From the NCBI GenBank assembly GCA_900770015.1, contig CAAGIU010000300.1:1-14725 (forward strand): a stretch of 14,725 nt of DNA, given 5' to 3'. Source of the DNA: an uncultured Oscillospiraceae bacterium (GTDB lineage Bacteria > Bacillota_A > Clostridia > Oscillospirales > Oscillospiraceae). A program made the position numbers and the translations under genes. Below, in pieces: positions 452 through 14,725 of the stretch; the stretch's first letter is position 1, and each line of letters begins with the position of its first letter. The notes beneath the pieces are model-generated. The model made no database searches. It was not told the DNA's origin and saw nothing but the letters and a program-made list of their open reading frames with translations.

Positions 452-453
452 GT

Positions 454-594
454 GCCAAGGAAAAAATACAGAAGCGCAAAGGGAAAGAACCCATTCCGGT
501 GCGCTCTCTGTGCTTCCTGAAACGAAAGGATCTTCCAGCCTCTGCTGCCGGGAAACGGTTGGAGGAGATGATTCTCAGCGCTGCCAGAAAATGA
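454..594 (+). pseudogene. Possible C-terminal remnant of a plus-strand gene (LysR-like tail?)
   Basis: Directly after the point where transposase similarity ends, the plus strand has an open frame ending in TGA at 592-594. It reads AKEKIQKRKGKEPIPV, then RSLCFLKRKDLPASAAG, then KRLEEMILSAARK. The pattern of a short strand with IPVR.LCF.KRKDLP followed by an amphipathic last helix resembles the tail of LysR-type effector domains, which would make this a regulator cut off by the insertion element. The evidence is one short fragment, so this is a weak call. The frame continues upstream to 385, but that part overlaps the transposase on the other strand. Confidence 0.28.
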
Positions 595-624: not shown

Positions 625-644
625 GATATCGGAACGAAAAATGT

Positions 645-812
645 ACCATTCAGGTGCCCGGGGTGGAATCAACACGGACGGGTGAAAAGGGAAGCCGGTG
701 GAAATCCGGCACGATGCTGTCACTGTGTATGGGAGCTGTTTTCGATTGCTCACTGGGAAACCGGGAAGAGGAAAATGGCGATGATCAAAGTCAGGAGACC
801 TGCCTGAATGTG
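645..812 (+). promoter_or_regulatory. Cobalamin (AdoCbl) riboswitch
   Basis: The conserved core elements occur in the right order: AAAAGGGAA (685-693), the GCCGG/CCGGC hairpin (694-710), GCTGTCACTGTG (715-726), CACTGGGAAACCGGGAAG (751-768) and the B12 box AAGTCAGGAGACCTGCC (788-804). The closing P1 stem pairs CATTCAGG (647-654) with CCTGAATG (803-810) perfectly. The aptamer therefore looks intact and foldable, and it faces the LysR gene starting at 1000. In this class, B12 binding normally lowers expression of the downstream gene by termination or by blocking ribosome binding. Nothing between the aptamer and 1000 looks like a protein gene, so the regulator is the apparent target. Confidence 0.93.
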
Positions 813-951
813 GAATTTCAGATTCGCAGTCTACGGATCGTCTTTCTCACATGTTTTCTTTCATTGGGCAGAATAAAAAAGCTGTGCGTCGATTGGCGCA
901 TGGCAGTTTTGTGTATGTTTTTTCCGATGAAATGGGAGCTGTTTTGATTGC
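729..951 (+). repeat. Near-identical direct repeat: riboswitch core segment and a copy in the leader
   Basis: The 21 bases at 729-749, starting ATGGGAGCTGTTTT and ending CGATTGC inside the riboswitch, recur at 932-951 with a single missing C. The downstream copy runs straight into the hairpin at 951-970. TGTGTATG also precedes both copies: immediately in the first, and separated by a T-rich insert in the second. The offset is about 203 bases. This is too long to be chance in a few hundred bases. It may be a decayed partial duplication of the riboswitch or an element kept for alternative folding. Confidence 0.8.
874..923 (+). terminator. Hairpin with U-rich tail, possible riboswitch expression platform
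   Basis: GCTGTGCG (881-888) pairs with CGCATGGC (897-904) through eight pairs, two of them G-U, around an 8-base loop. It is flanked by A-rich sequence at 874-880 and by AGTTTT then GTGTATGTTTTTT at 905-923. The geometry fits a Rho-independent terminator about 60 bases beyond the aptamer, a plausible distance for a riboswitch-controlled off-switch. I did not find a clear mutually exclusive anti-terminator, so riboswitch control is inferred. Confidence 0.5.
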
Positions 952-1932: not shown

Positions 1933-2005
1933 GCCATGCCCCATGGGAATCCCCCGTATTCCATTTTTCAATACACTCGTTATCTCTTTGGTTTTCAAAA
2001 TACAA

Positions 2006-2073
2006 GAGCCTGCCGAAAAAGAGGACCGCTTACGCAGTCAGCTGATTTTTTCGGCAGGTTCTTTTTTCTTTTT
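2006..2073 (+). terminator. Strong Rho-independent terminator after the LysR gene
   Basis: GAGCCTGCCGAAAAA (2006-2020) pairs with TTTTTCGGCAGGTTC (2047-2061) over 15 positions with one G-U pair. It is followed by TTTTTTCTTTTTG (2062-2074). The 26-base loop is long, but the stem and U tract are convincing. It ends the regulator transcript and separates it from the structural operon, so the operon needs its own promoter. Confidence 0.88.
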
Positions 2074-2122: not shown

Positions 2123-2151
2123 TTCACATTTTGACGTCATTTGAGTATACT
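2123..2151 (+). promoter_or_regulatory. SigA-type promoter of the fumarate/Hdr operon
   Basis: TTCACA (2123-2128) and TATACT (2146-2151) each match consensus at five of six positions and are separated by exactly 17 bases. Transcription would start near 2158, giving a leader of about 29 bases with an AAGGAG ribosome site (2174-2179) seven bases before the first gene. An alternative TTGACG at 2131-2136 also has a possible -10 at 17 bases (TATCGA), but that one is poor. Confidence 0.75.
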
Positions 2152-2186
2152 AATATCGATATGTAATTTCCGAAAGGAGAATCTCT

Positions 2187-3134
2187 ATGGGAACGAAAAT
2201 CACCATCATCGGCGCAGGCAGCGTGGGCTCCACCATTGCAAACGACCTGGTCGCCATGAACATTGCCACCGAAATTCTGCTGATTGATATCAATGAGCAG
2301 AAGGCCTTCGGAGAGGCAATGGACATTTATCAGGGCACCGGGTTCACCTCCCCCGCCATTGTCCGCTCCGGGCATTATGAGGATGCCGTGGGCTCCTCCA
2401 TCGTGATCATCACCTCCGGTTTGGCCCGAAAGCCCGGTCAGACCCGGCTGGAGCTGGCCCAGACCAATGTGGATATTCTCAAGCAGATCACCCCCAATAT
2501 TGTGAAATACGCCCCGGATGCTATCTATATCATCGTCTCCAATCCGGTGGATATCATGACCTACGCGTTCCACCGGCTCTCCGGCATCCCGGCTGAACGC
2601 ATCATCGGCTCCGGCACGGTGCTGGACACGGTGCGTCTCCAGACCGAGCTGGCAAAGGATTTCGGAATCAGCCCCAAAAATGTTCACGCCCATGTCTATG
2701 GGGAGCACGGGGACAGTTCCTTTGTCCCCTGGTCCCTGGCAACCATTTCCAACAATCACATCAGCCGCTACAAATCCCATGCGCCCCATCGGGATTCCAT
2801 TGTCTTCGATGGGGGCTATGACGCCTTTGAGGAGCGCATTCGGAAATCCGGCGCCGTTGTCATCCAGGCCAAGGGGGCCACCTTCTACGCCGTGGCCTTT
2901 TCTGTCTGCCACATCATCAAGTGCATCCTCAACGGCTCCGGCACAGCGCTGACGGTCTCCACCATGATGAACGGAGAATACGGCATTTCCGATGTCTGCC
3001 TGAGTGTACTGTGTATCGTGGACAGCAAGGGAGTCCGTGGAAAAATCCAGAATGACCTGACCGACGAGGAGCTGCAAAAGCTCCGCCGCAGTGCCGACAA
3101 ACTGAAAGAAACCATCGCTGCCATCAACATTTAG
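2187..3134 (+). CDS. mdh: Malate dehydrogenase of the LDH/MDH family (LDH-like sequence)
   Basis: A 315-residue NAD-dependent 2-hydroxyacid dehydrogenase. The nucleotide fold starts at GAGSVGS (residues 9-15), and Asp34 after the second strand indicates NAD rather than NADP. Catalytic residues are Asp147 and Arg150 (VLDTVR) and His174 (GEHGD). Most of the sequence looks like L-lactate dehydrogenase (TRLEL, SNPVDIMTY, GSGTVLDT). However, the specificity position has Arg81 in ARKPGQTR, where lactate dehydrogenases have Gln, and this Arg is the hallmark of malate/oxaloacetate enzymes. I therefore call it malate dehydrogenase. It heads the operon, and the next gene is fumarase, so the likely reaction is oxaloacetate + NADH to malate. 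Automated annotation may well label it lactate dehydrogenase. Confidence 0.85.
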   Translation: MGTKITIIGAGSVGSTIANDLVAMNIATEILLIDINEQKAFGEAMDIYQGTGFTSPAIVRSGHYEDAVGSSIVIITSGLARKPGQTRLELAQTNVDILKQITPNIVKYAPDAIYIIVSNPVDIMTYAFHRLSGIPAERIIGSGTVLDTVRLQTELAKDFGISPKNVHAHVYGEHGDSSFVPWSLATISNNHISRYKSHAPHRDSIVFDGGYDAFEERIRKSGAVVIQAKGATFYAVAFSVCHIIKCILNGSGTALTVSTMMNGEYGISDVCLSVLCIVDSKGVRGKIQNDLTDEELQKLRRSADKLKETIAAINI

Positions 3135-3147
3135 GGAGGATTGAGGA

Positions 3148-4524
3148 ATGGAATACCGCATTGAACATGATTCCATGGGAGAAGTACAGGTTCCCGCAGA
3201 CAAATATTGGGGCGCTCAGACCCAGAGAAGCCGCGAAAACTTCCCCATCGGCGTAGGACTGGAAACGATGCCGGTGGAGATTATTCACGCCTTCGGCATT
3301 CTGAAGCTGGCAGCTGCCAGAGCAAATCACGCTTTGAAGCCAGGAAAAATGACCGCCCCCAAGCTATCAGCCATTGAAAAAGCCGCCAAGGAGGTCATCT
3401 CCGGAGCATTAAACGACCATTTCCCCCTGGTCGTCTGGCAGACCGGCTCCGGCACCCAGTCCAACATGAACGCCAACGAGGTCATTGCCAACCGGGCCAA
3501 CGAGGTGGCCGGGGAGAAGCTGGTACACCCCAACGACGATATCAACATGAGCCAGTCCTCCAACGATACCTTCCCCACTGCCATGCACATCGCCGCGGTT
3601 TACGCCATCGAGGACAGGGTGCTGCCCGCCGTGGACACGCTGATCGATACCTTTTTGAAGCTGGAACGGGAGAACATCGATGCAGTCAAGTCCGGCAGGA
3701 CCCACCTGCAGGATGCCGTGCCCATCTCCTTTGCCCAGGAGATTTCCGGCTGGCGCACCAGTCTGGAGCGGGACAAGCAGCTGCTGGAAATCGCACTGCC
3801 GCCCCTGCGGGAGTTGGCACTGGGCGGCACCGCAGTCGGTACCGGTCTGAATGCTCCAAAGGGATTTGACAAAAAGGTTGCCGAAGAGGTTGCTCAGATT
3901 ACCGGCAAGGAATTTATTACCGCAGGCAATAAGTTCCATGCACTGACCTCCAAGGACGAGCTGGTATTTGCCCACGGTGCACTGAAAGCACTGGCAGCCG
4001 ACATGATGAAGATTGCCAATGATGTCCGTTGGCTGGCTTCCGGTCCCAGAGACGGTCTGGGTGAAATCTTCATTCCTGAAAATGAGCCCGGTTCCTCCAT
4101 CATGCCCGGTAAGGTCAACCCCACCCAGTGCGAAGCAGTCACCATGGTTGCTGTGCAGGTCATGGGCAATGATGCTACCATCGGCATCGCAGCCAGCCAG
4201 GGCAATTTCCAGCTGAATGTATTCATGCCGGTGATGGCTTACAATTTCCTGCAGTCTGCTCGGCTGTTGGCAGAATCCATCCAGTCCTTCAATGACCGCT
4301 GCGCTGTTGGTATCCGCCCCAACAAGGAGAAGATGCACTACAATCTGTATAACTCCCTGATGTTGGTCACGGCTCTGAATCCCTATATCGGCTACGAAAA
4401 CGCAGCTAAGACCGCCAAGAAGGCCTACAAGGAAAATATCTCTCTGAAAGAAGCCTGTGTTGCTCTGGGCTTCCTGACAGAGCAGCGTTTTGACGAAGTA
4501 TTCCACCCCGAACAGATGATTTGA
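3148..4524 (+). CDS. fumC: Class II fumarate hydratase
   Basis: A 458-residue member of the fumarase/aspartase superfamily at full length. It has [13 protein letters not shown], the [15 protein letters not shown] block, the [11 protein letters not shown] region and the signature [13 protein letters not shown] with the catalytic mobile-loop Ser. FumC and aspartase are close relatives. The N-terminal [20 protein letters not shown] and the malate dehydrogenase/fumarate reductase neighbours favour fumarase: malate to fumarate plus water, no iron-sulfur cluster needed. GGGAGG lies just before the start, 13 bases after the dehydrogenase stop. It links the dehydrogenase to the reductase encoded at the end of the operon. 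Confidence 0.93.
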
Positions 4525-4540
4525 TGGGGAGGAAACGGAA

Positions 4541-5335
4541 ATGACATACAGTTACTTTCCCGGCTGTACCCTGAAAACCAAGGGTGCGGACCTGGATGTC
4601 TACGGCAGAAAGGCCGCCGAGGTGCTGGGCTTTCCCCTGGAGGAGATCCCCGACTGGCAGTGCTGCGGCGGGGTCTACCCTCTTGCAAAGGACGAAATCG
4701 CCACCCGGCTGTCCTCCGTCCGGGCGCTGGCAGCGTCCCGGGAGCAGGGCGGCAAGCTGGTCACCCTGTGCTCCGCCTGCTACCATGTGCTCAAGCGGGT
4801 CAACGGGGATATGCGAAATGACGACGGCATCCGCCAGAAGGTCAACAACTATCTGGGCCTGGATATTCCCTATTTCGGGGAGACGGAGGTTCTGCACTAC
4901 CTGGAGGTTCTGCGGGACACGGTAGGCTGGGACAAGCTGCGTAACAAAGTCGTCAAACCCCTGACCGGGCGAAAAATCGGTGCATATTACGGCTGCTTGC
5001 TGCTGCGGCCCAGTCGGGAGCTGGGCTTTGACGATCCCGAAAATCCCACCATCATGGAGGATTTTCTTCGGGTCATTGGCGCAGAACCGGTCATCTACGC
5101 CATGCGAAATGAATGCTGCGGCGGCTACACCACCATTAAGAATCAGAAGTACGCCGCCAAACAGGCCCAGAAGGTTATCGACAATGCCTGCAACAGCGGT
5201 GCGGAAATGCTGATTACCGCCTGTCCGCTGTGCATGTATAACCTGACAAAGAACACGGACGGCAGTGTACCCGTCAAATATTTCACGGAGCTTCTGGCTG
5301 AGGCACTGGGACTGGAGGAGGAGAACCATGGCTGA
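4541..5335 (+). CDS. hdrB: HdrB-type heterodisulfide reductase subunit
   Basis: A 264-residue protein with two complete CCG domains. The first has Cys9, Cys41-Cys42 and Cys77/Cys80; the second has Cys152, Cys192-Cys193 and Cys228/Cys231. In methanogen HdrB such motifs bind two noncubane [4Fe-4S] clusters that cleave the CoM-CoB disulfide, and all ligands are kept here. Bacteria of this kind are not expected to make that heterodisulfide, so the physiological acceptor is unknown: a thiol/disulfide protein, or direct electron passage to the fumarate reductase subunits downstream. It has its own GGGGAGG site and overlaps hdrC by 8 bases, consistent with a 1:1 HdrBC unit. Confidence 0.93.
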   Translation: MTYSYFPGCTLKTKGADLDVYGRKAAEVLGFPLEEIPDWQCCGGVYPLAKDEIATRLSSVRALAASREQGGKLVTLCSACYHVLKRVNGDMRNDDGIRQKVNNYLGLDIPYFGETEVLHYLEVLRDTVGWDKLRNKVVKPLTGRKIGAYYGCLLLRPSRELGFDDPENPTIMEDFLRVIGAEPVIYAMRNECCGGYTTIKNQKYAAKQAQKVIDNACNSGAEMLITACPLCMYNLTKNTDGSVPVKYFTELLAEALGLEEENHG

Positions 5336-5714
5336 TCAGATGAGGCTTGACACCATCGCCTCCATTTCCGGTGTGAATCCCAGAAAATGTATGAAATGCG
5401 GCAAGTGCTCTGGTGCCTGCCCCGCCTATGATGAAATGGAATACCATCCCCATCAGTTTGTGTCCATGGTGGAAAGCGGCAGGCTTGATGAACTGATGGC
5501 GTCCTCAGGCATCTATACCTGCCTGAGCTGCTTTGCCTGCATCGAACGCTGTCCCCGAAGCGTGGAGCCCGCAAGGCTCATTGAGGCCGTCCGTCTGGCG
5601 GTGATCCGGCAGCAGGGAAACAATCATTTGACGCCCCAGCAGATCCCACCGCTGTTGGATGACGAGCTGCCCCAGCAGGCCATTACCAGCGCATTCCGAA
5701 AATACAGGCGATAA
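5328..5714 (+). CDS. hdrC: HdrC-type subunit, two [4Fe-4S] clusters
   Basis: A 128-residue small ferredoxin-like protein. Cluster motifs are Cys21/24/27/31 (CMKCGKCSGACP) and Cys65/68/71/75 (CLSCFACIERCP), the HdrC arrangement that wires HdrA to HdrB. I start it at 5328 because GGAGGAGGA lies just upstream and the family begins shortly before the first cluster; longer upstream starts would only read hdrB in another frame. It overlaps the hdrB stop by 8 bases, implying coupled translation. Confidence 0.92.
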   Translation: MADQMRLDTIASISGVNPRKCMKCGKCSGACPAYDEMEYHPHQFVSMVESGRLDELMASSGIYTCLSCFACIERCPRSVEPARLIEAVRLAVIRQQGNNHLTPQQIPPLLDDELPQQAITSAFRKYRR

Positions 5715-5725
5715 GGAGGAGGACA

Positions 5726-7717
5726 ATGCAGAAAATCGGCGTTTTTGTCTGCTGGTGCGGCAGCAATATTGCGGCAACGGTGGATGTGGAGGCAGTTTCT
5801 CAGGCTCTTTCCAGGGAGCCCGGCGTTGTATTCTCCACGAATTACCAGTACATGTGCTCCCAGACCGGGCAGGATCTGATTCAGAACAAAATCAAGGAAT
5901 ACGGGCTCACCGGCGTGGTGGTCTGCTCCTGCTCCCCCCGGATGCACGAGAATACCTTCCGCAAAACCTGTGAAAAAGCCGGGCTGAACCCCTATATGGT
6001 GGAGATCGCCAACATTCGTGAGCAGTGCTCCTGGATTCATAAGGACAAAGCGGCAGCCACGGAAAAGGCCATCATCCTGGGAAAAGCCGCCATTGCCAAG
6101 GTGCAGCTGAATGCCCCGCTCCGTGCCGGTACCAGTCCTGTCAAAAAGCGTGCGCTGGTCATCGGTGGCGGTATCGCCGGCATCCAGACGGCTCTGGACA
6201 TTGCGGATGCGGGATTTCCGGTGGACATCGTGGAAAAGCAGCCAACCATCGGCGGCAAGATGACCCAGATCGATAAGACCTTTCCCACACTGGACTGCGC
6301 CGCCTGTATCCTGACCCCCAAAATGGTGGACTGCGCCCAGAACGAGAACATCCGCATCTACGCCTATTCCGAAGTGGAAGCCGTCAAGGGCTTTGTGGGC
6401 AATTTCCAGGTGACCATCCGCAAAAAGGCAAGATTCGTAGACCCCGACAAGTGCACCGGCTGCGGCCTGTGTACCGAAAAGTGTCCCCAGAAGAAGGTTC
6501 CCAACGAATTCAATCTGGGTCTTGACAACCGCAGAGCCATTTATATTCCTTTTGCCCAGGCAGTTCCCAAGGTGGCAACCATCGATCCGGACTACTGCAA
6601 CATGCTGAAAAACGGGAAATGCGGTGTCTGTGCCAAGGTCTGCAGTGCCAATGCGATTGATTATAAACAGCAGGATGAACTGATTGAAGAAGAGTACGGA
6701 GCCATCGTGGCGGCTACCGGCTTCAATCCCATTGATTTAAGTAAATTCAATGAATTCGCCTATTCCCAGAGCCCGGATGTGGTGTCTTCCCTGGAATTCG
6801 AGCGGCTGATGAATGCTGCAGGCCCCACCGGCGGCACTCTGCTGCGACCTTCCGACGGCAAGCATCCCCACACCATTGTCTTTGTGCAGTGTGTAGGCTC
6901 CCGCTGCGATGGCGGCGAGAAGGGCAAGCCCTACTGCTCCAAGATCTGCTGTATGTACACCGCCAAGCATGCCATGCTCTGCCGGGAGAAATATCCCGAT
7001 ACCGAGGTTTATGTGTTCTATATCGACGTCCGTACCCCGGGCAAGAATTTCGACGAATTCTACCGCCGGGCTGTGGAGGAATACGGTGTCCATTACATCA
7101 AGGGGATGGTGGGCAAGGTGGTTCCCGAAAACGGCAAGCTGAAGGTGCAGGCCTCTGACCTGCTGGACAACCGCCAGCTGCACATTGACGCAGATATGGT
7201 GGTGCTGGCAGCTGCCATCGAGCCGGACAAGAGCGCCAGACCCCTGGCCACCATGCTCACCGCCTCCATGGATACCAACGATTTCTTCACCGAGGCCCAT
7301 CCCAAGCTGCGGCCTGTGGAGAACCCCACGGCGGGCATTTTCCTGTCCGGTGCCTGTCAGGGCCCTAAGGACATCCCGGAGACCGTCGCCCAGGCGGGAG
7401 CCGCCGCAGCCAAGGTCATCGGACTTTTGAGCAAGGATTATCTGCTCTGCAATCCCTGCACGGCACAGCCGGACGAGATGATGTGCAACGGCTGCTCCAG
7501 CTGCGAAAAGGTATGTCCTTACGGAGCCATTACCTATATCGACAAAGAGTTCCGTGGTCCCAACCGCACCACGCTGCTGCGCCGGGTGGCCCAGGTCAAT
7601 CCAGCGGTCTGCCAGGGCTGCGGTGCCTGTACCGTCGCCTGCATGAGCGGTGCTATGGATTTGAAGGGCTTCTCCAACAGACAGATTATGGCGGAGGTAG
7701 ATGCGATATGCAAGTAA
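5726..7717 (+). CDS. hdrA: HdrA, flavin-based electron-bifurcating subunit
   Basis: A 663-residue protein with full HdrA layout. The N-terminal iron-sulfur domain has VCWCGSN (Cys9, Cys11), Cys44 and CSCSPRMHENTFR (from Cys67). The FAD domain begins with VIGGGIAG (145-152), and TLDCAACILTPKM follows. An inserted ferredoxin domain has Cys243/246/249/253 and Cys291/299/302/306. The conserved FVQCVGSR stretch ends near 393. A C-terminal ferredoxin domain has Cys587/590/593/597 and Cys629/632/635/639. In characterised Hdr complexes the HdrA FAD splits electron pairs, one toward HdrC/HdrB and one toward ferredoxin. All expected cysteine sets are present. AAGGAGGAGG precedes the start, and the end overlaps the FlxD gene by 10 bases. 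Confidence 0.95.
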   Translation: MQKIGVFVCWCGSNIAATVDVEAVSQALSREPGVVFSTNYQYMCSQTGQDLIQNKIKEYGLTGVVVCSCSPRMHENTFRKTCEKAGLNPYMVEIANIREQCSWIHKDKAAATEKAIILGKAAIAKVQLNAPLRAGTSPVKKRALVIGGGIAGIQTALDIADAGFPVDIVEKQPTIGGKMTQIDKTFPTLDCAACILTPKMVDCAQNENIRIYAYSEVEAVKGFVGNFQVTIRKKARFVDPDKCTGCGLCTEKCPQKKVPNEFNLGLDNRRAIYIPFAQAVPKVATIDPDYCNMLKNGKCGVCAKVCSANAIDYKQQDELIEEEYGAIVAATGFNPIDLSKFNEFAYSQSPDVVSSLEFERLMNAAGPTGGTLLRPSDGKHPHTIVFVQCVGSRCDGGEKGKPYCSKICCMYTAKHAMLCREKYPDTEVYVFYIDVRTPGKNFDEFYRRAVEEYGVHYIKGMVGKVVPENGKLKVQASDLLDNRQLHIDADMVVLAAAIEPDKSARPLATMLTASMDTNDFFTEAHPKLRPVENPTAGIFLSGACQGPKDIPETVAQAGAAAAKVIGLLSKDYLLCNPCTAQPDEMMCNGCSSCEKVCPYGAITYIDKEFRGPNRTTLLRRVAQVNPAVCQGCGACTVACMSGAMDLKGFSNRQIMAEVDAICK

Positions 7718-8145
7718 AAACCGAATGGAAGCCCACCATCGTTGCCTTCTGCTGCAACTGGTGCAGCTACGCCGGGGCGGACCTTTCCGGCACCAACCGG
7801 CTGCAGTATCCCGCCGATGTGAAAATCGTCCGCATCCCGTGCTCCTGCCGCCTAAATCCCATGTTTATTCTCCGGGCCTTCCAGCGGGGCGCTGACGGGG
7901 TGATCCTCTGCGGCTGCCATCCCGGCGACTGTCACTACACCACCGGCAACTACTACGCCCGCAGAAGAATGACCCTGCTGTTTTCCATGCTGGAATACCT
8001 GGGGATCGAACGGGAGCGCACCCGGGTGGAATGGGTCTCCGCTGCCGAGGGTGCCAAGTTTGCCGCAACCATGAATGATTTCGTAAAGACCGTTACCGCT
8101 CTGGGCGAGAACAAGAGACTGGAGGATCTGCGATGCAAGGAGTAA
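7708..8145 (+). CDS. flxD: MvhD/FlxD-type [2Fe-2S] adaptor subunit
   Basis: A 145-residue protein with the MvhD signature: FCCNWCSYAGAD (Cys15, Cys16, Cys19), RIPCSCRLNP (Cys45, Cys47) and CGCHPGDCHYTTGNY (Cys68, Cys70, Cys75). These ligate a [2Fe-2S] cluster that carries electrons from the donor module to HdrA. Here the donor is not a hydrogenase but the NAD-binding FlxA-type protein three genes on, so FlxD fits better than MvhD. The start at 7708 overlaps the hdrA stop, with GGAGG at 7693-7697. Confidence 0.9.
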   Translation: MQVKTEWKPTIVAFCCNWCSYAGADLSGTNRLQYPADVKIVRIPCSCRLNPMFILRAFQRGADGVILCGCHPGDCHYTTGNYYARRRMTLLFSMLEYLGIERERTRVEWVSAAEGAKFAATMNDFVKTVTALGENKRLEDLRCKE

Positions 8146-9104
8146 AAGAAAAAGCCCTGGAGCTCCTTCGCTCCGGGAAAGCAGACCGGGTACTGGGCTG
8201 GAAAGCAGGGGAATTCTTCTATGACCTGACCCCGGCGGTCTTTGAAAGCGCCGAGGAAGCAGAGAAGGATTTTTGTTACAGCCCGTTCTCCGGTGCCAAC
8301 CTGTCCAAATACCTGATTGCCGAGAGCAAAAAGGGGGGCAAAATCGCGGTCTTTCTGAAGCCCTGCGACAGCTTCTCCTTTGTCCAGCTCCAAAAGGAGC
8401 ACCGCGTGAAGCGGGAAAACGTGTACGCCGTGGGCATCCAGTGTGACGGCATGTGCGACGCCGAAGCGCTGCGGGAAGCCGGCTGCGAGGGGCTTACCGG
8501 GCTTGAGGACGGCGAAGTGCTGACCGTACATACTCTTTACGGTGACAAAACTGTGGAAAAGCAGGCTGCTCTGCTGGGAAAATGTCGCACCTGCAAGAGC
8601 AAGCGAATCACCGATTATGATGAATTACTCGGGGAGCAGGGAGCGGACATCCCTTCCTCCCGGTTTGACCAGGTTGCCGCGCTGGAGGCCATGACCCCGG
8701 AGGAGCGCTTTGCCTTCTGGCGGAAGGAGCTGAGCAAGTGCATCCGCTGCAACGCCTGCCGGAATGTCTGCCCCGCCTGCAGCTGTGAAAAATGTGTCTT
8801 CGATAATCCCGCCTCCGGGGTGCAGAACAAGGCTGCAGCCGATTCCTTTGAGGAAAAAATGTTCCACATTATCCGGGCATTCCATGTGGCCGCTCGCTGC
8901 ACCGACTGCGGCGAATGCAGCCGAGTCTGTCCCCAGAAAATCCCCCTGCATCTGCTGAACCGGAAATTCATCAAGGACATTAGCGACCTGTACGGCCCCT
9001 ATCAGGCAGGCGCGGACTTCGCTTCCAGGCCGCCCCTGATGGATTTCAGCACGGAGGACCCCGAGCCTTCCGTCATCTATTCCAGAGGAGGCGCTGCGAA
9101 ATGA
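8133..9104 (+). CDS. flxC: FlxC-type dicluster ferredoxin-domain protein (FrhB-like N-terminus)
   Basis: A 323-residue iron-sulfur protein. The N-terminal part has FLKPCDS (Cys78), IQCDGMCD (Cys104, Cys108) and GKCRTCKSKR (Cys151, Cys154), resembling the F420-hydrogenase/dehydrogenase beta-subunit fold. The C-terminal half has two ferredoxin motifs, Cys203/206/209/213 and Cys256/259/262/266, with three extra cysteines just after the first (PACSCEKC; 216, 218, 221). It starts inside the last 13 bases of flxD and ends in an ATGA overlap with the next gene. Its place between the FlxD- and FlxB-type genes supports an electron-wire role in the NADH-oxidising module; an F420 or flavin site is not certain. 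Confidence 0.75.
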   Translation: MQGVKEKALELLRSGKADRVLGWKAGEFFYDLTPAVFESAEEAEKDFCYSPFSGANLSKYLIAESKKGGKIAVFLKPCDSFSFVQLQKEHRVKRENVYAVGIQCDGMCDAEALREAGCEGLTGLEDGEVLTVHTLYGDKTVEKQAALLGKCRTCKSKRITDYDELLGEQGADIPSSRFDQVAALEAMTPEERFAFWRKELSKCIRCNACRNVCPACSCEKCVFDNPASGVQNKAAADSFEEKMFHIIRAFHVAARCTDCGECSRVCPQKIPLHLLNRKFIKDISDLYGPYQAGADFASRPPLMDFSTEDPEPSVIYSRGGAAK

Positions 9105-10126
9105 AAAAAATCCCTGTTTCCCAACTGAACAGCCTGTTTGCCGCCATTGCCGAAAAGCAGAAGCTGTACCTTCCGGTGGATGATACCAGCGGACAGAGCC
9201 AATTCACCCTTTGGGAAGACGGAATGTGCCTTTCAAAGAGCGTCAACACCGTCCGCAGCGCCAAGGATTGCTTCTTTCCCCAGGTGGAAAACCTGATGGG
9301 CTTCAAGGTTGAAGGAAGCCAAATCCAGCTGATTGAGACGAGGGACCCGGCGGAGCCCTTCGTCCTTTTCGGGGTGCGGGCCTGCGATGTCCGCAGCTTT
9401 GACATTCTGGATCGGGTGTTCCTGGCAGAGCCTGTGGATACCTACTACGCCCAGCGGCGGGAAAGCTGCTGTGTGATTTCTCTCGCCTGCGGAAAGCCCA
9501 CCGAAACCTGCTTCTGCACCGCCTTCGGCATTGACCCCGCCCAGCCAAAAGGAGACGTCACTTGCTATCTGACGGAAAATCTGCTCTACTGGCAGGCAAA
9601 CACTGAAACCGGCGAAGCGCTGACTGATGGACTCCCCATGCTGGAGGATGCTGACCCGGCGGGAGCGGAGGAAGAAAAAGCAGCCATCCGGGCAATTGTC
9701 CAAAAGCTGCCCTTTGGTAAGCTGAATCTTTCCGCCTTTGGCGCGGGAAAGACGAAGGCGCTCTTTGACCTTCCCCAGTGGAAAGAGCTTGCCGAAAGCT
9801 GCCTGGGCTGCGGCACCTGCACCTTCGTCTGCCCCACCTGCCAGTGCTACGACATTCAGGAGTTTTCCGGCGGCAAGACGGTGAAGCGCTTTCGCTGCTG
9901 GGACAGCTGCATGTATTCCGACTTCACAAAAATGTCCGCCGGACAGCCCCGGCCGACCCAGACCGAGCGCTTCCGCCAGCGCTTTATGCACAAGCTGGTT
10001 TATTACCCGGATAACCATGAGGGGCTCTTTTCCTGTGTCGGCTGCGGCCGGTGTCTTCGCAAATGCCCCATTCACATGAACATCGTCAAGGTTGTCAAAA
10101 CAATCGGGGAGGGAGCGAGCAAATGA
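9101..10126 (+). CDS. flxB: FlxB-type dicluster iron-sulfur protein (sulfhydrogenase-beta/AsrA-like)
   Basis: A 341-residue protein. The conserved GVRACDVRSFDILDRVF stretch (residues 91-107), followed by CCVISLACGKPTETCFC, is typical of the sulfhydrogenase beta subunit and anaerobic sulfite reductase A family. Two [4Fe-4S] motifs follow, CLGCGTCTFVCPTCQC (234-249) and CVGCGRCLRKCPIH (312-325), separated by a RFRCWDSCMY segment. No sulfite reductase catalytic subunit or hydrogenase is encoded nearby, so the sulfur-metabolism names should not be used here. It overlaps both neighbours by four bases, with strict coupling to the NAD-binding partner that follows. Confidence 0.8.
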   Translation: MKKIPVSQLNSLFAAIAEKQKLYLPVDDTSGQSQFTLWEDGMCLSKSVNTVRSAKDCFFPQVENLMGFKVEGSQIQLIETRDPAEPFVLFGVRACDVRSFDILDRVFLAEPVDTYYAQRRESCCVISLACGKPTETCFCTAFGIDPAQPKGDVTCYLTENLLYWQANTETGEALTDGLPMLEDADPAGAEEEKAAIRAIVQKLPFGKLNLSAFGAGKTKALFDLPQWKELAESCLGCGTCTFVCPTCQCYDIQEFSGGKTVKRFRCWDSCMYSDFTKMSAGQPRPTQTERFRQRFMHKLVYYPDNHEGLFSCVGCGRCLRKCPIHMNIVKVVKTIGEGASK

Positions 10127-10947
10127 GAGAACCTTTGATTCCCATGATTGGCGTGGTCACGGCCATTCGAGTGGACACACCCGATGTGAAGACCTTCCGG
10201 GTGGTTGGTCTGGACGGAAAGAAGCCCTTTCTGCACATTCCCGGTCAGTGCGCCATGCTGTCCATCCCCGGCGTGGGGGAAGCCCTGTTTTCCATCACCT
10301 CCAGCCCCACGGAGGAGGCTTTTCTGGAGTTCTCCATCAAAAAATGCGGCTGTGTCACCGAATGGCTGCACGCCATGGAGCCGGGGCAGCAGCTCACCAT
10401 CCGAGGCCCCTACGGCAACGGGTTCCCTGTGGACACGGACTTTGCGGGGAAAGACCTGCTCTTTATCGCGGGCGGCATCGGCCTCGCCCCCCTGCACTCC
10501 GTCATCAACTACTGCCGCGCTCACCGGGAAAACTACGGCAAAATCGACATTGTGTACGGCTCCCGCTCCAAGGCGGACCTGGTGGACTTTGAGGAGATTC
10601 TGAATGAATGGTGCCGGGAAGACGGCATCCGGGTTCACCTGACCATTGACAATCCGGAGCCCGACTGGGACGGTCATGTGGGCTTTGTCCCAAACTTCGT
10701 AAAGGAGCTGAACCCCGATACCGCCAGAACCGTTGTGATGTGCGGCCCGCCCATTATGATCAAGTTCACCCTGGGCGGCCTGATGGAGCTGGGCTTTGAC
10801 CGGAACAATATCTACACCACCATGGAGTTGAAAATGAAGTGCGCTCTGGGCAAATGCGGCCGGTGCAACATCGGAAACAAATACGTCTGCAAGGACGGCC
10901 CTGTCTTCCGCTTTGACCAGCTGGATGCGCTGCCGGATGAGTATTAA
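10123..10947 (+). CDS. flxA: FlxA-type FAD/NAD(H)-binding subunit with [2Fe-2S] cluster
   Basis: A 274-residue ferredoxin-NADP reductase-like protein of the sulfhydrogenase-gamma/AsrB type. The FAD barrel has IPGQ (39-42) and FSITSSP (56-62). The nucleotide domain has GGIGLAPL (117-124) and CGPP (207-210). A C-terminal Cys240/245/248/256 set (KMKCALGKCGRCNIG) binds a [2Fe-2S] cluster. It is the entry point for a pyridine nucleotide in this operon, giving the electrons passed by FlxB, FlxC and FlxD to HdrA. NADH is the likely donor given the Flx context, but specificity between NADH and NADPH cannot be read safely. The start overlaps the upstream stop as ATGA, with GGGAGG before it. Confidence 0.87.
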   Translation: MREPLIPMIGVVTAIRVDTPDVKTFRVVGLDGKKPFLHIPGQCAMLSIPGVGEALFSITSSPTEEAFLEFSIKKCGCVTEWLHAMEPGQQLTIRGPYGNGFPVDTDFAGKDLLFIAGGIGLAPLHSVINYCRAHRENYGKIDIVYGSRSKADLVDFEEILNEWCREDGIRVHLTIDNPEPDWDGHVGFVPNFVKELNPDTARTVVMCGPPIMIKFTLGGLMELGFDRNNIYTTMELKMKCALGKCGRCNIGNKYVCKDGPVFRFDQLDALPDEY

Positions 10948-10957
10948 GGAGAAACGT

Positions 10958-11632
10958 ATGGAAGAAATGGTTCAAGTCTATCTTTTCGGCAAGAAATACG
11001 CCGTACCGGCCAGCCTGACCATCATGGAGGCCATGGAGTATTCCGGCTATCAGCTGGTTCGGGGCTGCGGCTGCCGGAACGGCTTCTGCGGTGCCTGCGC
11101 CACGGTGTACCGCATTGCCGGTGACCGGGAGCTGAAGGCCTGTCTGGCCTGCTCCACTAAGGTTGAGGATAATATGTATGTGGCAACGCTGCCCTTCTTC
11201 CCTCTGGTGAAAGAGGTTTATAATATCGAGGAAGTGAAGCCCACCCAGCAGATCATGATGCAGCTGTACCCGGAAATCTATTCCTGTGTTGGCTGCAACG
11301 CCTGCACCAAGGCCTGCACCCAGGGGCTGAACACCATGCAGTATATTGCCTATGCCCAGCGCGGGGAGTATGAGAAGTGCGCAGAGGCTTCCTTCGATTG
11401 CGTGATGTGCGGTGTCTGCTCCTCCCGCTGCCCTGCGGGAATCTCCCATCCGCAGGTTTCCATGCTGGCTCGCCGCCTGAACGGCAAGTATCTGGCTCCT
11501 CACTGCGACCATCTGGACGAGCGTGTGCAGGAAATTCTGGACGGCAAGTACGAAAAGCTGATTGAGGATCTGATGGGTAAACCCATTGAAGAAATCAAAG
11601 AGCTGTATAACACCCGCGATATCGAGAAGTAA
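10958..11632 (+). CDS. Fumarate reductase-type iron-sulfur subunit, [2Fe-2S] plus two [4Fe-4S]
   Basis: A 224-residue protein. Residues 1-75 are a plant-type ferredoxin fold with GCGCRNGFCGACATV (Cys37/39/44/47) and ACLAC (Cys62, Cys65). The second half has CVGCNACTKACTQG (110/113/116/120) and CVMCGVCSSRCPAG (148/151/154/158). This is the FrdB/SdhB order, and the flavoprotein follows 12 bases later. Both C-terminal motifs have four cysteines in HdrC-like spacing, whereas classical FrdB has a [3Fe-4S] cluster in the last site. I start it at 10958 (GGAGAAACGT upstream, 10 bases after the flxA stop). It probably carries electrons from HdrBC or HdrA to the flavoprotein. There is no CCG domain, unlike methanogen TfrB. 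Confidence 0.82.
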   Translation: MEEMVQVYLFGKKYAVPASLTIMEAMEYSGYQLVRGCGCRNGFCGACATVYRIAGDRELKACLACSTKVEDNMYVATLPFFPLVKEVYNIEEVKPTQQIMMQLYPEIYSCVGCNACTKACTQGLNTMQYIAYAQRGEYEKCAEASFDCVMCGVCSSRCPAGISHPQVSMLARRLNGKYLAPHCDHLDERVQEILDGKYEKLIEDLMGKPIEEIKELYNTRDIEK

Positions 11633-11644
11633 GGAGGCAGCACG

Positions 11645-13255
11645 ATGTATCTTGATCCGAAAATGAATGAATCCATCCGCAAGGTAGAAGCGGCCCGGGA
11701 AGCCAACATGAAGCTGGACCCCAGCCGTATGACTGCGGAGGAAAAGGAAAATCTGCTGAAAACCTTCCATCCTGATTACCGGGAGGATCAGTTCGTGTCT
11801 TTGCGCATCGGCCCCAACAAGGGCGAGAAAGTGCCCGCTGAGCTGGCAGCACTGCTGGAGGGCAAGTCCCGGATGGACGGGTTAAGCGTGGATCTGACCA
11901 ATCCAGACTATGAGACGGATGTGCTGATTATCGGCGGCGGCGGTGCAGGCTGCAGTGCAGCGATTGAAGCCAATGAAAACGGTGCCAGCGTGCTGATGGT
12001 GACCAAGCTCCGTGTGGGCGATGCCAACACCATGATGGCAGAGGGTGGCATTCAGGCTGCTGATAAGCCCAACGATTCTCCTGCCCAGCATTTTCTGGAT
12101 GCCTTCGGCGGCGGTCATTTCGCAGCCCAGAAGGATCTGCTGTATAAGCTGGTCACAGAAGCTCCCGAGGCCATCCAGTGGCTGAGCAAGCTGGGCGTGG
12201 AATTTGACAAAGCTCCCGACGGCACCATGATTACCACCCATGGCGGCGGCACCTCACGGAAGCGTATGCACGCTGCCAAGGACTACTCCGGTGCAGAGAT
12301 CATGCGCACTCTGCGGGACGAAGTACTGAACCGGGGCATTCCCGTTGTGGATTTCACTTCGGCTATCGAGCTGATTAAGGACGAGAACGGTAAATGTGCC
12401 GGTGCTGTCCTTATGAATATGGAAACCAAAGAACTGATGGTTGCCAAAGCAAAGACTGTCATTCTTGCCACCGGCGGTGCCGGACGGCTCCACTACCAGG
12501 GCTTCCCCACCTCCAACCACTATGGTGCCACCGCCGACGGTCTGGTGCTGGCCTACCGGGCTGGTGCGCGACTGCTGTACCCGGATACCTTGCAGTATCA
12601 TCCCACGGGGGCAGCTTTCCCCGCCCAGATTTACGGCGCGCTGGTCACGGAAAAGGTGCGCTCCCTGGGGGCCATGCTGGTCAACGCCAAGGGCGAAGTA
12701 TTTATGAATCCCCTGGAAACCCGGGACGTTTCCGCTGCGGCCATCATCCGGGAGTGCACCGAGCGGGGCAATGGGGTGACAACCCCCCAGGGCTGCGCCG
12801 TCTGGCTGGACACCCCCATGATTGAGGCAAAGCACGGAGCAGGCACCATTGAAAAGCGAATCCCCGCCATGCTGCGTATGTTTGCCAAGCATGGCATCGA
12901 CATCCGCCAGGAGCCTATTCTGGTCTATCCCACCCTGCATTACCAGAACGGCGGCCTGAAGATCAGCGCCAACGGCCAGACTGAGCTTGAAAACCTGTAC
13001 GCAGCCGGTGAAGTCGTCGGCGGTATCCATGGCCGCAACCGTCTGATGGGCAACAGTCTGCTGGACATCATCGTCTTTGGCCGCAATGCCGGTAAGGAAG
13101 CCTCTGAAAAGGCAAAGTCTGTCCAGGTTGGTGAGTTGACACTGAGCCACCTGAAAGCTTATAATACGCTTCGTGCGGAAGCGGGCATTCATGACGATAA
13201 GATGTCGCCTCAGCTGCTGCCGGATTACGTTAGAAAAGAGAATAGAGGGAAATAA
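11645..13255 (+). CDS. Fumarate reductase flavoprotein subunit (soluble type)
   Basis: A 536-residue member of the fumarate reductase/succinate dehydrogenase flavoprotein family. The FAD motif GGGGAG lies at 97-102, after an unusual 90-residue N-terminal extension. Active-site landmarks are retained: QYHPTG (His319), VTEKVR (Glu336, Arg339), TRDVS (Arg360), LHYQNGG (His432) and GRNRLMGNS (Arg464, Arg466). At the position where membrane-bound FrdA/SdhA carries a covalently flavinylated His, this protein has Asn128 (ANTMMAEGG), so FAD is probably bound noncovalently. Only about 55 residues follow the last FAD-binding segment, so the usual C-terminal helical domain is missing. GGAGGC lies before the start. 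L-aspartate oxidase is a relative, but no nadA or nadC neighbours it, and the iron-sulfur partner argues for fumarate reduction. Confidence 0.85.
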   Translation: MYLDPKMNESIRKVEAAREANMKLDPSRMTAEEKENLLKTFHPDYREDQFVSLRIGPNKGEKVPAELAALLEGKSRMDGLSVDLTNPDYETDVLIIGGGGAGCSAAIEANENGASVLMVTKLRVGDANTMMAEGGIQAADKPNDSPAQHFLDAFGGGHFAAQKDLLYKLVTEAPEAIQWLSKLGVEFDKAPDGTMITTHGGGTSRKRMHAAKDYSGAEIMRTLRDEVLNRGIPVVDFTSAIELIKDENGKCAGAVLMNMETKELMVAKAKTVILATGGAGRLHYQGFPTSNHYGATADGLVLAYRAGARLLYPDTLQYHPTGAAFPAQIYGALVTEKVRSLGAMLVNAKGEVFMNPLETRDVSAAAIIRECTERGNGVTTPQGCAVWLDTPMIEAKHGAGTIEKRIPAMLRMFAKHGIDIRQEPILVYPTLHYQNGGLKISANGQTELENLYAAGEVVGGIHGRNRLMGNSLLDIIVFGRNAGKEASEKAKSVQVGELTLSHLKAYNTLRAEAGIHDDKMSPQLLPDYVRKENRGK

Positions 13256-14172
13256 TGGATACGGTATTGACTCTGGTCAAGCAGACGGTCACCATGTTTT
13301 TGCTGGCGGGCGTTGGCTTTGCTATGTTCAAAAGCGGTAAAATCACAAAAGAAGGCAGCAAATCCATCGGCAATATTCTGATTTACGGCTCGCTTCCCTG
13401 TGTGCTGATTTCTTCATTCTTCATTGAAAAGACGCAGGAGCACATGATTGGCTTAGCAATCAGTGCTGCCCTCGGTTTCTTGCTGGTGCTGATGAGCATT
13501 CTTGTGGGAAAACTGTGTTTCCGGGAGGACGCAATCGCCAAATTTGCTGCCGCTTTTTCCAATCCCGGCTTCTTCGGAATCCCCTTGATTCTTGCCTCCC
13601 TGGGCAGCGGATGCGTCTTTTATGTGGCAGGCTTCATTGCCTGCGTTAACCTGGGCCAGTGGACCTATGGTGTTGCGGTTATGACCGGGCAAAAGGGCGG
13701 TTTTTCCTTGAAGCGTCTTGTAACCGCACCCTTCGCCATTGCGATTGCAATCGGTCTGGCGATTTTCCTCACTGGAATCGAGATCCCCGGCATCCTGAAA
13801 AACAGCATCACTGCTATCAAAGAACTCAATACCCCTCTGGCAATGTTTACGGTGGGAATCTATCTGGCACAGACAGATTTGAAAAACATGTTTTTCAAGA
13901 AATCGCTGTACAGCATTTCCCTTGTGCGTCTGCTGGTGATTCCTGCATTGGCCATTTTGCTCCTGTGGCCGCTGCCGGCAGCGATGCTGGATATGAAAAT
14001 CGCTCTGTTTATCGCCGCGGCCTGCCCGGTAGGCTCCAATATCGCTGTCTATGCGCAGCTGCATAATCAGGACTATGCCTATTCTGTGGAAACCGTTATT
14101 ATCTCCACAATTCTAGCCATCGTCACCATGCCGATCATGGTGAGCCTTGCACAGATGGTCTGGGCACTCTGA
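13255..14172 (+). CDS. AEC-family (auxin efflux carrier) organic acid transporter
   Basis: A 305-residue hydrophobic protein with about ten predicted membrane segments and no cleavable signal peptide. The conserved FSNPGFFGIPL stretch (residues 101-111) and the matching C-terminal repeat (ACPVGSNIAVYAQ) mark the AEC family, which includes bacterial malate permeases. The ATG shares its A with the flavoprotein stop codon, so it belongs to the operon, and it uses a weaker AGAGGGA site. In this context it probably moves malate, fumarate or succinate across the membrane; the direction and exact substrate cannot be read from sequence. Confidence 0.85.
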   Translation: MDTVLTLVKQTVTMFLLAGVGFAMFKSGKITKEGSKSIGNILIYGSLPCVLISSFFIEKTQEHMIGLAISAALGFLLVLMSILVGKLCFREDAIAKFAAAFSNPGFFGIPLILASLGSGCVFYVAGFIACVNLGQWTYGVAVMTGQKGGFSLKRLVTAPFAIAIAIGLAIFLTGIEIPGILKNSITAIKELNTPLAMFTVGIYLAQTDLKNMFFKKSLYSISLVRLLVIPALAILLLWPLPAAMLDMKIALFIAAACPVGSNIAVYAQLHNQDYAYSVETVIISTILAIVTMPIMVSLAQMVWAL

Positions 14173-14314: not shown

Positions 14315-14587
14315 TTATTCGACATGGCGGTTCTGCTTCGCCAGTTCCGAAATGTCCGGGTATTTAGGCAGAACAAAGGCATAACCGCCGGGGCTGTGTG
14401 GAATCAGGCAATTGGTACAGTCCTTAATTCCCTTATCTGTATAACGGAAATTTCCGCCGCACCGGTCTCCCAGGGCGTACAGCGGGCAGTAGCAGAACAG
14501 GCAGTTAAAATCTTCCGCTGCCCCTTTGTGGCAAGGAAAATACTTGCATTCCCGGTTCCGGAAAAAGCTATGATCGTTTTGTTTCAT
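14315..14587 (-). CDS. Small cysteine-rich metal-binding-type protein
   Basis: A 90-residue minus-strand protein of the cysteine-rich small domain family (Pfam Cys_rich_small). It shows SFFRNRECKYFPCHKG, then DFNCLFCYCPLYALGDRCGGN, then GIKDCTNCLIPH, with nine cysteines likely to bind a metal or iron-sulfur cluster. This domain is often encoded beside, or fused to, cobalamin biosynthesis enzymes, but its function is not established. I prefer the start at 14587 (GGGAGGGG upstream, and the family begins at this point). An in-frame ATG at 14611 overlaps the upstream stop and could add eight residues. It converges on the transporter gene, leaving only 142 bases between the stop codons. Confidence 0.85.
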   Translation of the reverse strand: MKQNDHSFFRNRECKYFPCHKGAAEDFNCLFCYCPLYALGDRCGGNFRYTDKGIKDCTNCLIPHSPGGYAFVLPKYPDISELAKQNRHVE

Positions 14588-14607
14588 GGGTTTCCGCCCC
14601 TCCCAAT

Positions 14608-14725
14608 TCATACTTCCCGGTTGATGACGCGGTAGACAAGCTCCATGTCCAGCCCGCCCCGGACAGCATCAGCCAGAGAATCATATTGACGCTTCTTATA
14701 CTCTTGTAGGTCAAAGGTACCTAAG
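14608..14725 (-). CDS. cobQ: C-terminus of a probable cobyric acid synthase (partial)
   Basis: The minus strand has an open frame from the window edge to a TGA at 14608-14610. It reads GTFDLQEYKKRQYDSLAD, then AVRGGLDMELVYRVINREV, with no stop inside. The closing pattern (YK..QYD.LAD.VR..LDM...Y.I) resembles the last helices of cobyric acid synthase (CobQ/CbiP), which amidates the corrin ring. Its stop overlaps a possible start of the cysteine-rich gene, so the two are probably cotranscribed. Only about 39 residues are visible, so the name is tentative. Confidence 0.5.
   Translation of the reverse strand, partial: LGTFDLQEYKKRQYDSLADAVRGGLDMELVYRVINREV

What the first reader, a model, noticed from the sequence alone, without database searches (positions are those of the whole stretch)
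2123..14172. Operon for an NADH-dependent, possibly electron-bifurcating fumarate reductase (Mdh-Fum-HdrBCA-FlxDCBA-Frd)
Seen: one promoter followed by twelve co-directional genes with overlaps or short gaps. They include a complete HdrABC set, a FlxABCD-like NADH module and a fumarate reductase flavoprotein/iron-sulfur pair, preceded by malate dehydrogenase and fumarase. Known: HdrABC-Flx complexes oxidise NADH and split electrons between a higher-potential disulfide-type acceptor and ferredoxin. Methanogens have a thiol-linked fumarate reductase (TfrAB), and fumarate/succinate is far more positive than NADH. Inferred: the pair replaces or extends the heterodisulfide branch, so 2 NADH + fumarate + oxidised ferredoxin gives succinate + reduced ferredoxin. 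No quinone-binding or membrane anchor subunit is encoded. I do not know of a characterised example of this combination.
Basis: partly seen in the sequence, partly recalled or inferred. Interest (0 to 1): 0.88.

Follow-up and report, generated by a model that had tools for sequence, protein, structure and literature searches.

The report
Gut Clostridia NADH-linked fumarate reductase operon
A gut bacterium carries one operon for making succinate without quinones, in which an electron-splitting complex probably feeds NADH electrons to fumarate while also charging ferredoxin; the idea has been proposed before for a relative but, as far as I could see, not proven.

Summary
Twelve co-directional genes encode a malate dehydrogenase, fumarase, HdrBCA, FlxDCBA, FrdBA and a permease. 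Of 80 related clostridial loci, 58 hold the nine-gene HdrBCA-FlxDCBA-FrdBA block, all 58 in the same order; the other 22 run off their contigs. FrdA and the cluster cysteines look intact. In 16 related genomes I found no menaquinone pathway (menB, MqnC), no DsrC, and exactly one HdrA, the operon's own. A soluble NADH:fumarate reductase in which Hdr feeds FrdBA is therefore well supported. That ferredoxin is also reduced is likely but unproven, here and in what I read. The idea is not new: the same kind of operon and reaction were proposed for Pseudoclostridium thermosuccinogenes, and a Flx-Hdr/TfrAB cluster for tubeworm symbionts. What I add: HdrB, far more than HdrA, sets the Frd-linked complexes apart. 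Every Frd-adjacent HdrB put in a tree (20) falls in one clade (100/100, long stem) holding none of 20 HdrBs from FrdA-negative genomes; the clade includes HdrCB-FrdBA operons without HdrA. This points to HdrB as the exit port to FrdB. Against it, some genomes have this FrdBA without Hdr. New member of a known (proposed) kind; medium interest.

The parts
2005..2062 (+). terminator-like hairpin after the upstream LysR gene, marking the operon's 5' side
   Evidence: RNA fold -30.4 kcal/mol, z -4.98 against shuffles, followed by a T run
2123..2151 (+). promoter-like site (TTCACA-17-TATACT)
   Evidence: 10/12 consensus match; sites in the window as a whole not above chance
2187..3134 (+). NAD-dependent malate dehydrogenase of the LDH/MDH family
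   Evidence: Pfam Ldh_1_N/C; NCBIfam L-LDH above cut-off; Arg81 in 40 of 40 aligned copies, Gln in the aligned LDH 4m1q
3148..4524 (+). class II fumarase FumC
   Evidence: TIGR00979 715 bits, cut-off 664.75; at over 70% identity in 54 of the 58 complete loci
4541..5335 (+). HdrB, two CCG motifs (non-cubane cluster sites); member of the Frd-associated HdrB clade
   Evidence: PF02754; ten motif cysteines in 59 of 59 rows; clade and diagnostic residues
5328..5714 (+). HdrC, two [4Fe-4S] sites
   Evidence: TIGR03290 62.7 bits, below its cut-off of 160; eight cysteines in 59 of 59 rows
5726..7717 (+). HdrA, FAD and ferredoxin-domain subunit, presumed bifurcation site
   Evidence: aligned over 658 residues with 5odc_A, 682 bits; cluster cysteines kept in 63 rows apart from a few truncated N-termini
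7708..8145 (+). FlxD/MvhD linker subunit
   Evidence: PF02662 183.3 bits
8133..9104 (+). FlxC, 4Fe-4S dicluster protein, FdhB/FrhB-like
   Evidence: Pfam Fer4 dicluster; best PDB matches F420 formate dehydrogenase beta subunits of Hdr complexes
9101..10126 (+). FlxB, HydB/AsrA-like Fe-S subunit
   Evidence: PF17179; sulfhydrogenase 1 beta 9nez_B, E 7.6e-43
10123..10947 (+). FlxA, FAD/NAD(P)H-oxidising subunit
   Evidence: PF00175, PF10418, PF00970 (read from 10126); sulfhydrogenase 1 gamma 9nez_C, E 1.8e-57
10958..11632 (+). FrdB, [2Fe-2S] plus two [4Fe-4S] sites, no CCG domain
   Evidence: Pfam/NCBIfam (read from 10949); each of the twelve ligand cysteines in at least 103 of 104 rows
11645..13255 (+). 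FrdA, fumarate reductase flavoprotein with an N-terminal extension of about 88 residues and no usual C-terminal domain
   Evidence: PF00890 270 bits; active-site residues invariant; model best matched by E. coli FrdA 1kf6
13255..14172 (+). AEC-type permease, presumed C4-dicarboxylate transporter
   Evidence: PF03547 73 bits; among the 80 loci a homologue was scored only in L001

Best explanation
The operon encodes the reductive branch from oxaloacetate to succinate plus a soluble, quinone-free NADH:fumarate reductase. FlxA oxidises NADH; electrons pass FlxB/FlxC/FlxD to the HdrA flavin, which splits them. One branch leaves through HdrA's ferredoxin domains and reduces ferredoxin. The other goes HdrC -> HdrB (non-cubane clusters as a relay) -> FrdB -> FrdA flavin -> fumarate. 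Net: 2 NADH + fumarate + oxidised ferredoxin -> 2 NAD+ + succinate + reduced ferredoxin, the last usable by Rnf or hydrogenases. Shown from sequence: gene content, order, conservation, intact cofactor and active sites, lack of quinone genes in relatives, and HdrB specialisation linked to FrdBA. Inferred: complex formation, direction, HdrB-FrdB contact, ferredoxin reduction.
For: Order fixed in 58 of 58 complete loci among 80. FrdA active-site His319, Arg339, His432, Arg466 in 111 of 111 rows, cluster cysteines kept. In 16 of 16 relatives: no menB, no MqnC above cut-off, no DsrC, exactly one HdrA, the operon's; RnfC above cut-off in 12 of 16. In 299 phylum genomes HdrA is in 27 of 30 FrdA+ and 73 of 269 FrdA- genomes. 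FrdBA is joined to Flx-Hdr in three separated FrdA lineages with three gene orders, and HdrCB-FrdBA pairs exist without HdrA in the operon. All 20 Frd-adjacent HdrBs tested form a clade with 5 from other FrdA+ genomes and 0 of 20 from FrdA- genomes. FrdA contexts without Hdr carry fumarase, malic enzyme, malate dehydrogenase or pyruvate carboxylase, which supports fumarate as substrate (genes read by eye). Thermodynamically allowed. In P. thermosuccinogenes a like operon was about 4-fold up under CO2 limitation, and H2 suppressed succinate, which its authors read as a ferredoxin link (PMC7282089, passages).
Against: No biochemistry. Three FrdA+ genomes (G083, G087, G312) lack HdrA at E <= 1e-120, so this FrdBA type can work with other donors; 11 of 31 FrdA loci show no Hdr within the stretch fetched and 4 are cut short. 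Four FrdA+ genomes (G049, G055, G091, G096) gave only HdrBs outside the Frd clade. The Moorella MetFV-HdrABC-MvhD complex did not reduce ferredoxin (Mock 2014 as told in PMC8578096, passage). In a tubeworm symbiont tfrAB did not follow the expression pattern of the rest of its Hdr-Flx cluster (PMC11636981, passage).
Confidence: 0.63

Rival explanations
1. Same complex, no bifurcation: Flx-Hdr is only a wire from NADH to FrdBA, and all of the energy is lost as heat.
For: The Moorella MetFV-HdrABC-MvhD complex does not reduce ferredoxin (PMC8578096, passage). 4 of the 16 relatives have no RnfC above cut-off.
Against: HdrA keeps its flavin motif and ferredoxin-domain cysteines. A 14-gene-product relay to move electrons from NADH to fumarate would be costly when simpler NADH:fumarate enzymes exist (recalled).
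Confidence: 0.22
2. Two enzymes in one operon: Hdr reduces an unknown small or protein disulfide, and FrdBA takes electrons from that thiol or from ferredoxin; no direct complex.
For: HdrB keeps all ten cluster cysteines, as does the generic type. FrdBA occurs in genomes without HdrA. TfrAB of methanogens uses thiols (named from NCBIfam, and PMC6315080).
Against: FrdB lacks the CCG domain that NCBIfam's TfrB model carries C-terminally and that HdrB matches, so it has no thiol site of its own. No DsrC in 16 of 16 relatives. HdrB type follows FrdBA.
Confidence: 0.07
3. The flavoprotein reduces another unsaturated acid, not fumarate.
For: FAD_binding_2 reductases include many substrates, for example urocanate reductase among the PDB matches.
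Against: Malate dehydrogenase and fumarase in the same operon; fumarase, malic enzyme, malate dehydrogenase or pyruvate carboxylase beside unlinked homologues; active-site residues as in complex II.
Confidence: 0.05
4. The complex runs backwards, oxidising succinate with confurcation of reduced ferredoxin electrons to NAD+.
For: Hdr-type bifurcation is in principle reversible (recalled).
Against: The forward reaction is downhill by 18 to 49 kJ under the potentials tried.
Confidence: 0.03

Closest known systems
'Succinate operon' of Pseudoclostridium thermosuccinogenes (PMC7282089; Koendjbiharie and van Kranenburg 2019 preprint, not read)
   Same: Fumarase, seven Flx-Hdr genes, two fumarate reductase genes and a putative transporter in one run; same reaction proposed.
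   Different: There no malate dehydrogenase is named at the head. I could not fetch its sequence, so protein relatedness is untested.
FlxABCD-HdrABC of Desulfovibrio (Ramos 2015, seen as a reference; PMC4215793, passages)
   Same: Same seven-subunit NADH/Hdr set.
   Different: There the high-potential acceptor is thought to be a DsrC-type disulfide and fumarate reductase is a separate quinol enzyme; here FrdBA is in the operon and relatives lack DsrC.
flxABCD-hdrABC interspersed with korABCD and tfrAB in tubeworm symbionts and Thioflavicoccus (PMC6315080, PMC11636981, passages)
   Same: Flx-Hdr next to a thiol-type fumarate reductase; direct electron transfer proposed.
   Different: Reductive TCA cluster of Gammaproteobacteria, with OGOR; tfrAB rather than this short FrdB.
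Thiol:fumarate reductase TfrAB of methanogens
   Same: FrdA scores best against TfrA (361 bits); CCG chemistry linked to a fumarate reductase.
   Different: Below the TfrA cut-off of 718 bits; CCG domain on separate HdrB, not on FrdB; NADH module added.
MetFV-HdrABC-MvhD of Moorella (PMC8578096, passages)
   Same: Hdr module with a swapped acceptor enzyme.
   Different: Methylene-THF reductase as acceptor; no ferredoxin reduction found.

Membership tests
FlxABCD-HdrABC NADH dehydrogenase/heterodisulfide reductase | All seven subunits with cofactor sites | tested here: met
FlxABCD-HdrABC NADH dehydrogenase/heterodisulfide reductase | A known disulfide partner (DsrC) in the genome | tested here: not met
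   0 of 16 relatives; the window's own genome is not held
FlxABCD-HdrABC NADH dehydrogenase/heterodisulfide reductase | NADH-dependent ferredoxin reduction | not testable with these tools
   needs biochemistry
Proposed Flx-Hdr-coupled fumarate reductase (P. thermosuccinogenes type) | Fumarase + Flx-Hdr + FrdBA in one operon | tested here: met
   compared with the operon as described in PMC7282089
Proposed Flx-Hdr-coupled fumarate reductase (P. thermosuccinogenes type) | Sequence kinship with the P. thermosuccinogenes proteins | not tested
Thiol:fumarate reductase TfrAB | TfrA model above cut-off | tested here: not met
   361 bits, cut-off 718
Thiol:fumarate reductase TfrAB | Iron-sulfur subunit with fused CCG domain | tested here: not met
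   FrdB 224 residues, no PF02754
Quinol:fumarate reductase / complex II | Catalytic residues of the flavoprotein | tested here: met
   aligned with complex II flavoproteins; invariant
Quinol:fumarate reductase / complex II | Covalent-FAD histidine | tested here: not met
   Asn128 where Mycobacterium Sdh1 has His; Asn in 111 of 111 rows
Quinol:fumarate reductase / complex II | Membrane anchor and quinone | tested here: not met
   no anchor among the twelve genes; menB 0 of 16, MqnC above cut-off 0 of 16 relatives
8-Methylmenaquinol:fumarate reductase SdhABE | SdhE model above cut-off for the HdrB-like subunit | tested here: not met
   151.6 bits, cut-off 500

The most novel reading that the evidence does not exclude
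A dedicated HdrB type is the docking and exit port for fumarate reductase. Its non-cubane clusters work as a relay to FrdB instead of reducing a disulfide, so Hdr complexes change their terminal acceptor by exchanging HdrB together with an acceptor enzyme, while HdrA and the donor module stay generic.
Probability: 0.45. Interest if true: 0.68.

Novelty: new member of a known kind. Interest (0 to 1): 0.55.

Why it matters
Clostridia without cytochromes or quinones are not expected to conserve energy on fumarate, yet many make succinate and the electron donor is often left open (for example PMC12773636 draws a generic NADH-dependent fumarate reductase for Blautia luti; passages). If fumarate reduction charges ferredoxin, succinate formation yields ion-motive force through Rnf and extra ATP, which changes energy budgets for anaerobes of the gut. 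The HdrB result makes the open question of how Hdr complexes choose acceptors directly testable, in a cultured relative (Eubacterium coprostanoligenes ATCC 51222, locus L028).

Tried and rejected
FrdB structure model: mean pLDDT 58.2, too poor for a fold search, not used. FrdA model: mean pLDDT 70, used only for a coarse match. No multimer tool is offered, so the HdrB-FrdB contact could not be modelled. A wish to test SdhE kinship of HdrB failed to separate types: Frd-type and generic HdrBs score similarly against both HdrB and SdhE models, the Frd type lower on TIGR03288 (124-163 bits in six, window included, against 167-208 in five; for all but the window only the aligned piece was scanned). 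His119, at first taken as a mark of the Frd-type HdrB, is also present in the aligned methanogen HdrBs, so it is not unique. HdrC does not separate the groups (32.8-40.2% against 28.7-42.7%). HdrA gives the same split but weakly (91/84, branch 0.035), so a single origin of the Frd-linked Hdr lineage with later rearrangement is as possible as repeated recruitment. The Fisher test on co-occurrence (p 1.7e-11) ignores kinship. Papers PMC9044749, PMC6776011 and PMC4478896 (passages) held nothing that bears on the operon.

Rows dropped before counts: 6 of 47 FrdA-negative HdrA loci (L122, L149, L156, L161, L163, L164) and 3 of 24 loci from FrdA-positive genomes (L124, L172, L173) had no HdrB or HdrA hit over 60% of the query and are not. 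The FrdA-negative loci were picked from the top of the HdrA ranking, which biases their HdrA identity upward. The HdrB tree used 20 of the 41 FrdA-negative rows and 6 window-type rows; the HdrA tree used 12 FrdA-negative rows and 9 of the other FrdA-positive rows and left out L165 and L171. L165 and L171 were long branches. The FrdA tree used 20 of the 80 window-type loci.


Full report
What is there. The window carries a LysR gene (985-1932), a strong terminator-like hairpin (2005-2062), a weak promoter-like site (2123-2151) and twelve + strand genes from 2187 to 14172 that overlap or lie 10-16 bases apart. Family scans give: Ldh_1-type dehydrogenase, class II fumarase, HdrB, HdrC, HdrA, MvhD/FlxD, FlxC, FlxB, FlxA, an SdhB-like protein (FrdB), an FAD_binding_2 flavoprotein (FrdA) and an AEC permease. 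The first gene is named L-lactate dehydrogenase by NCBIfam, but Arg81 stands where a true lactate dehydrogenase has Gln, in 40 of 40 aligned copies. By the recalled specificity rule it is a malate dehydrogenase.

Conservation. Of the 80, 58 hold HdrBCA-FlxDCBA-FrdBA complete, all 58 in the same order and strand; the 22 others stop at a contig end. FumC over 70% identity is in 54 of the 58 and a malate dehydrogenase homologue over 50% within 4 kb in 38. The permease is less constant: it was scored only in L001.

Sites. FrdA keeps His319, Arg339, His432 and Arg466 in 111 of 111 rows and His462 in 108; the alignment with Mycobacterium Sdh1 puts them on complex II motifs. The covalent-FAD histidine is Asn128 (111 of 111), so FAD is probably non-covalent. 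FrdA has about 88 extra N-terminal residues and ends without the usual C-terminal domain; its model, of middling quality, is best matched by E. coli FrdA. FrdB has one [2Fe-2S] and two [4Fe-4S] ligand sets, each cysteine in at least 103 of 104 rows, and no CCG domain. HdrB keeps both CCG motifs in 59 of 59 rows, HdrC both clusters in 59 of 59, and HdrA aligns end to end with the methanogen HdrA 5odc_A.

Genomic setting. No genome is held for the window, so 16 genomes behind related loci, picked by me, were used. None has menB, none has MqnC above cut-off (10 have weak matches), none has DsrC. Each has exactly one HdrA at E <= 1e-60, that of the operon. RnfC is above cut-off in 12 of 16. Many of these are draft genomes, so each absence alone is weak; the agreement of 16 is not. 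Hence fumarate reduction here is unlikely to use quinol, and the Hdr complex has no other known acceptor.

FrdBA outside this group. In 299 genomes drawn from the phylum of L028's genome, 30 have this FrdA type, with 31 matches at E <= 1e-80, all of them at 1e-185 or better. Around these 31 (30 fetched, plus L028): Flx-Hdr is adjacent in 6; HdrCBA with further HdrA-like genes and MvhD in 8 (one of them, L099, cut at a contig end, so that HdrB and HdrC were not seen); HdrCB alone in 2; none seen in 11; cut short in 4. Contexts without Hdr carry, by eye, fumarase, malic enzyme, malate dehydrogenase, pyruvate carboxylase or a CoA transferase, which supports fumarate as the substrate. Genome-wide, HdrA (E <= 1e-120) is in 27 of the 30 FrdA+ genomes and 73 of 269 FrdA- genomes (kinship not corrected). 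The three exceptions, G083, G087 and G312, hold the nearest outside relatives of the window's FrdA, so this enzyme family can live without HdrA. On the FrdA tree the Flx-Hdr link occurs in three separated places with three gene orders.

The HdrB result. Identity to the window's HdrB is 40.8-48.4% in 12 Frd-adjacent loci with HdrA, 42.2 and 44.0% in the two HdrCB-FrdBA loci, and 24.1-36.7% in 41 loci from FrdA-negative genomes, with no overlap. HdrC overlaps fully, and HdrA tends the other way, though the FrdA-negative loci were chosen by HdrA rank. In a 61-row HdrB tree one branch (100/100, length 0.62) holds all 6 window-type and all 14 other Frd-adjacent HdrBs, 5 from FrdA+ genomes where Frd lies elsewhere, and 0 of 20 from FrdA- genomes. 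Eight genomes (G065, G139, G104, G196, G221, G297, G268, G060) hold a Frd-adjacent HdrB inside and another HdrB outside, a control within genomes. Against it: sampled HdrBs of four FrdA+ genomes (G049, G055, G091, G096) are all outside; an HdrCB pair away from any HdrA would have been missed. HdrA shows the same split only weakly (91/84, branch 0.035). Both HdrB types keep all ten cysteines (25 of 25, 28 of 28), but residues beside the clusters differ: Thr10, Pro47 and Val83 in 25 of 25 of the Frd type against mostly Ser, Ala and Arg in the other. The acceptor-side subunit has thus changed with FrdBA while HdrA hardly has.

Mechanism. The best reading is NADH -> FlxA/B/C/D -> HdrA, splitting to ferredoxin and to HdrC -> HdrB -> FrdB -> FrdA -> fumarate. 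With NADH at -320 mV and fumarate at +33 mV (values in PMC5861303, passage) and ferredoxin at -420 to -500 mV, the overall reaction is downhill by 48.8 to 33.4 kJ per succinate, and by 17.9 kJ under the least favourable values tried. The wiring is supported; the splitting is inferred from HdrA's kinship with proven bifurcating complexes. The Moorella MetFV-HdrABC-MvhD complex, which does not reduce ferredoxin (PMC8578096, passage), shows that this inference can fail.

Prior work. Ten library searches and passages of ten papers were seen. PMC7282089 describes a like operon in P. thermosuccinogenes and the same reaction as an assumption, citing a 2019 preprint that is not held. PMC6315080 and PMC11636981 propose Flx-Hdr feeding tfrAB in sulfur-oxidising symbionts; there tfrAB did not follow the expression of its cluster. 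I saw no report of a purified complex in these searches, which cover open-licence papers only.

Verdict. A real, conserved operon, widespread in the sample, of a kind already proposed in print; most likely an electron-bifurcating NADH:fumarate reductase, not proven. The HdrB specialisation is the part that I did not see in the passages read.

Noticed in passing
window 635-821 (+): Full-length cobalamin riboswitch (RF00174, 93.1 bits) right behind a 12/12 promoter-like site (596-624) and upstream of the LysR gene; none in 7 related loci scanned. It may tie the LysR regulator, and so the operon, to B12 status.
   Followed up: partly
window 2-574 (-): IS1182-type transposase piece running off the window's left end (NF033551, 63 bits, below cut-off).
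   Followed up: partly
window 14315-14611 (-): Cysteine-rich small domain protein (PF04071, 99.6 bits) convergent with the operon; the fragment behind it (14608-14724, -) had no family match.
   Followed up: partly
L084, L086, L087, L091, L092, L095, L099, L102: FrdBA beside HdrCBA plus further HdrA-like and MvhD genes, without a clear FlxA/FlxB match: a different, undescribed donor module for the same fumarate reductase.
   Followed up: partly
L088 and L094: Compact hdrC-hdrB-frdB-frdA operons with no HdrA within the stretch fetched.
   Followed up: partly
L083: FrdBA downstream of two NapC/NrfH-like cytochrome genes, class I fumarase and followed by a malic enzyme (by eye): possibly a quinol-linked version.
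   Followed up: no
HdrA matches in many G genomes: Many HdrA frames hold one in-frame TGA, possibly selenocysteine.
   Followed up: no
L001 and L076: Record titles name Bacteroidaceae and Planctomycetaceae, but the operon there is 70-97% identical to clostridial ones in most subunits; probably mislabelled or mixed bins.
   Followed up: no
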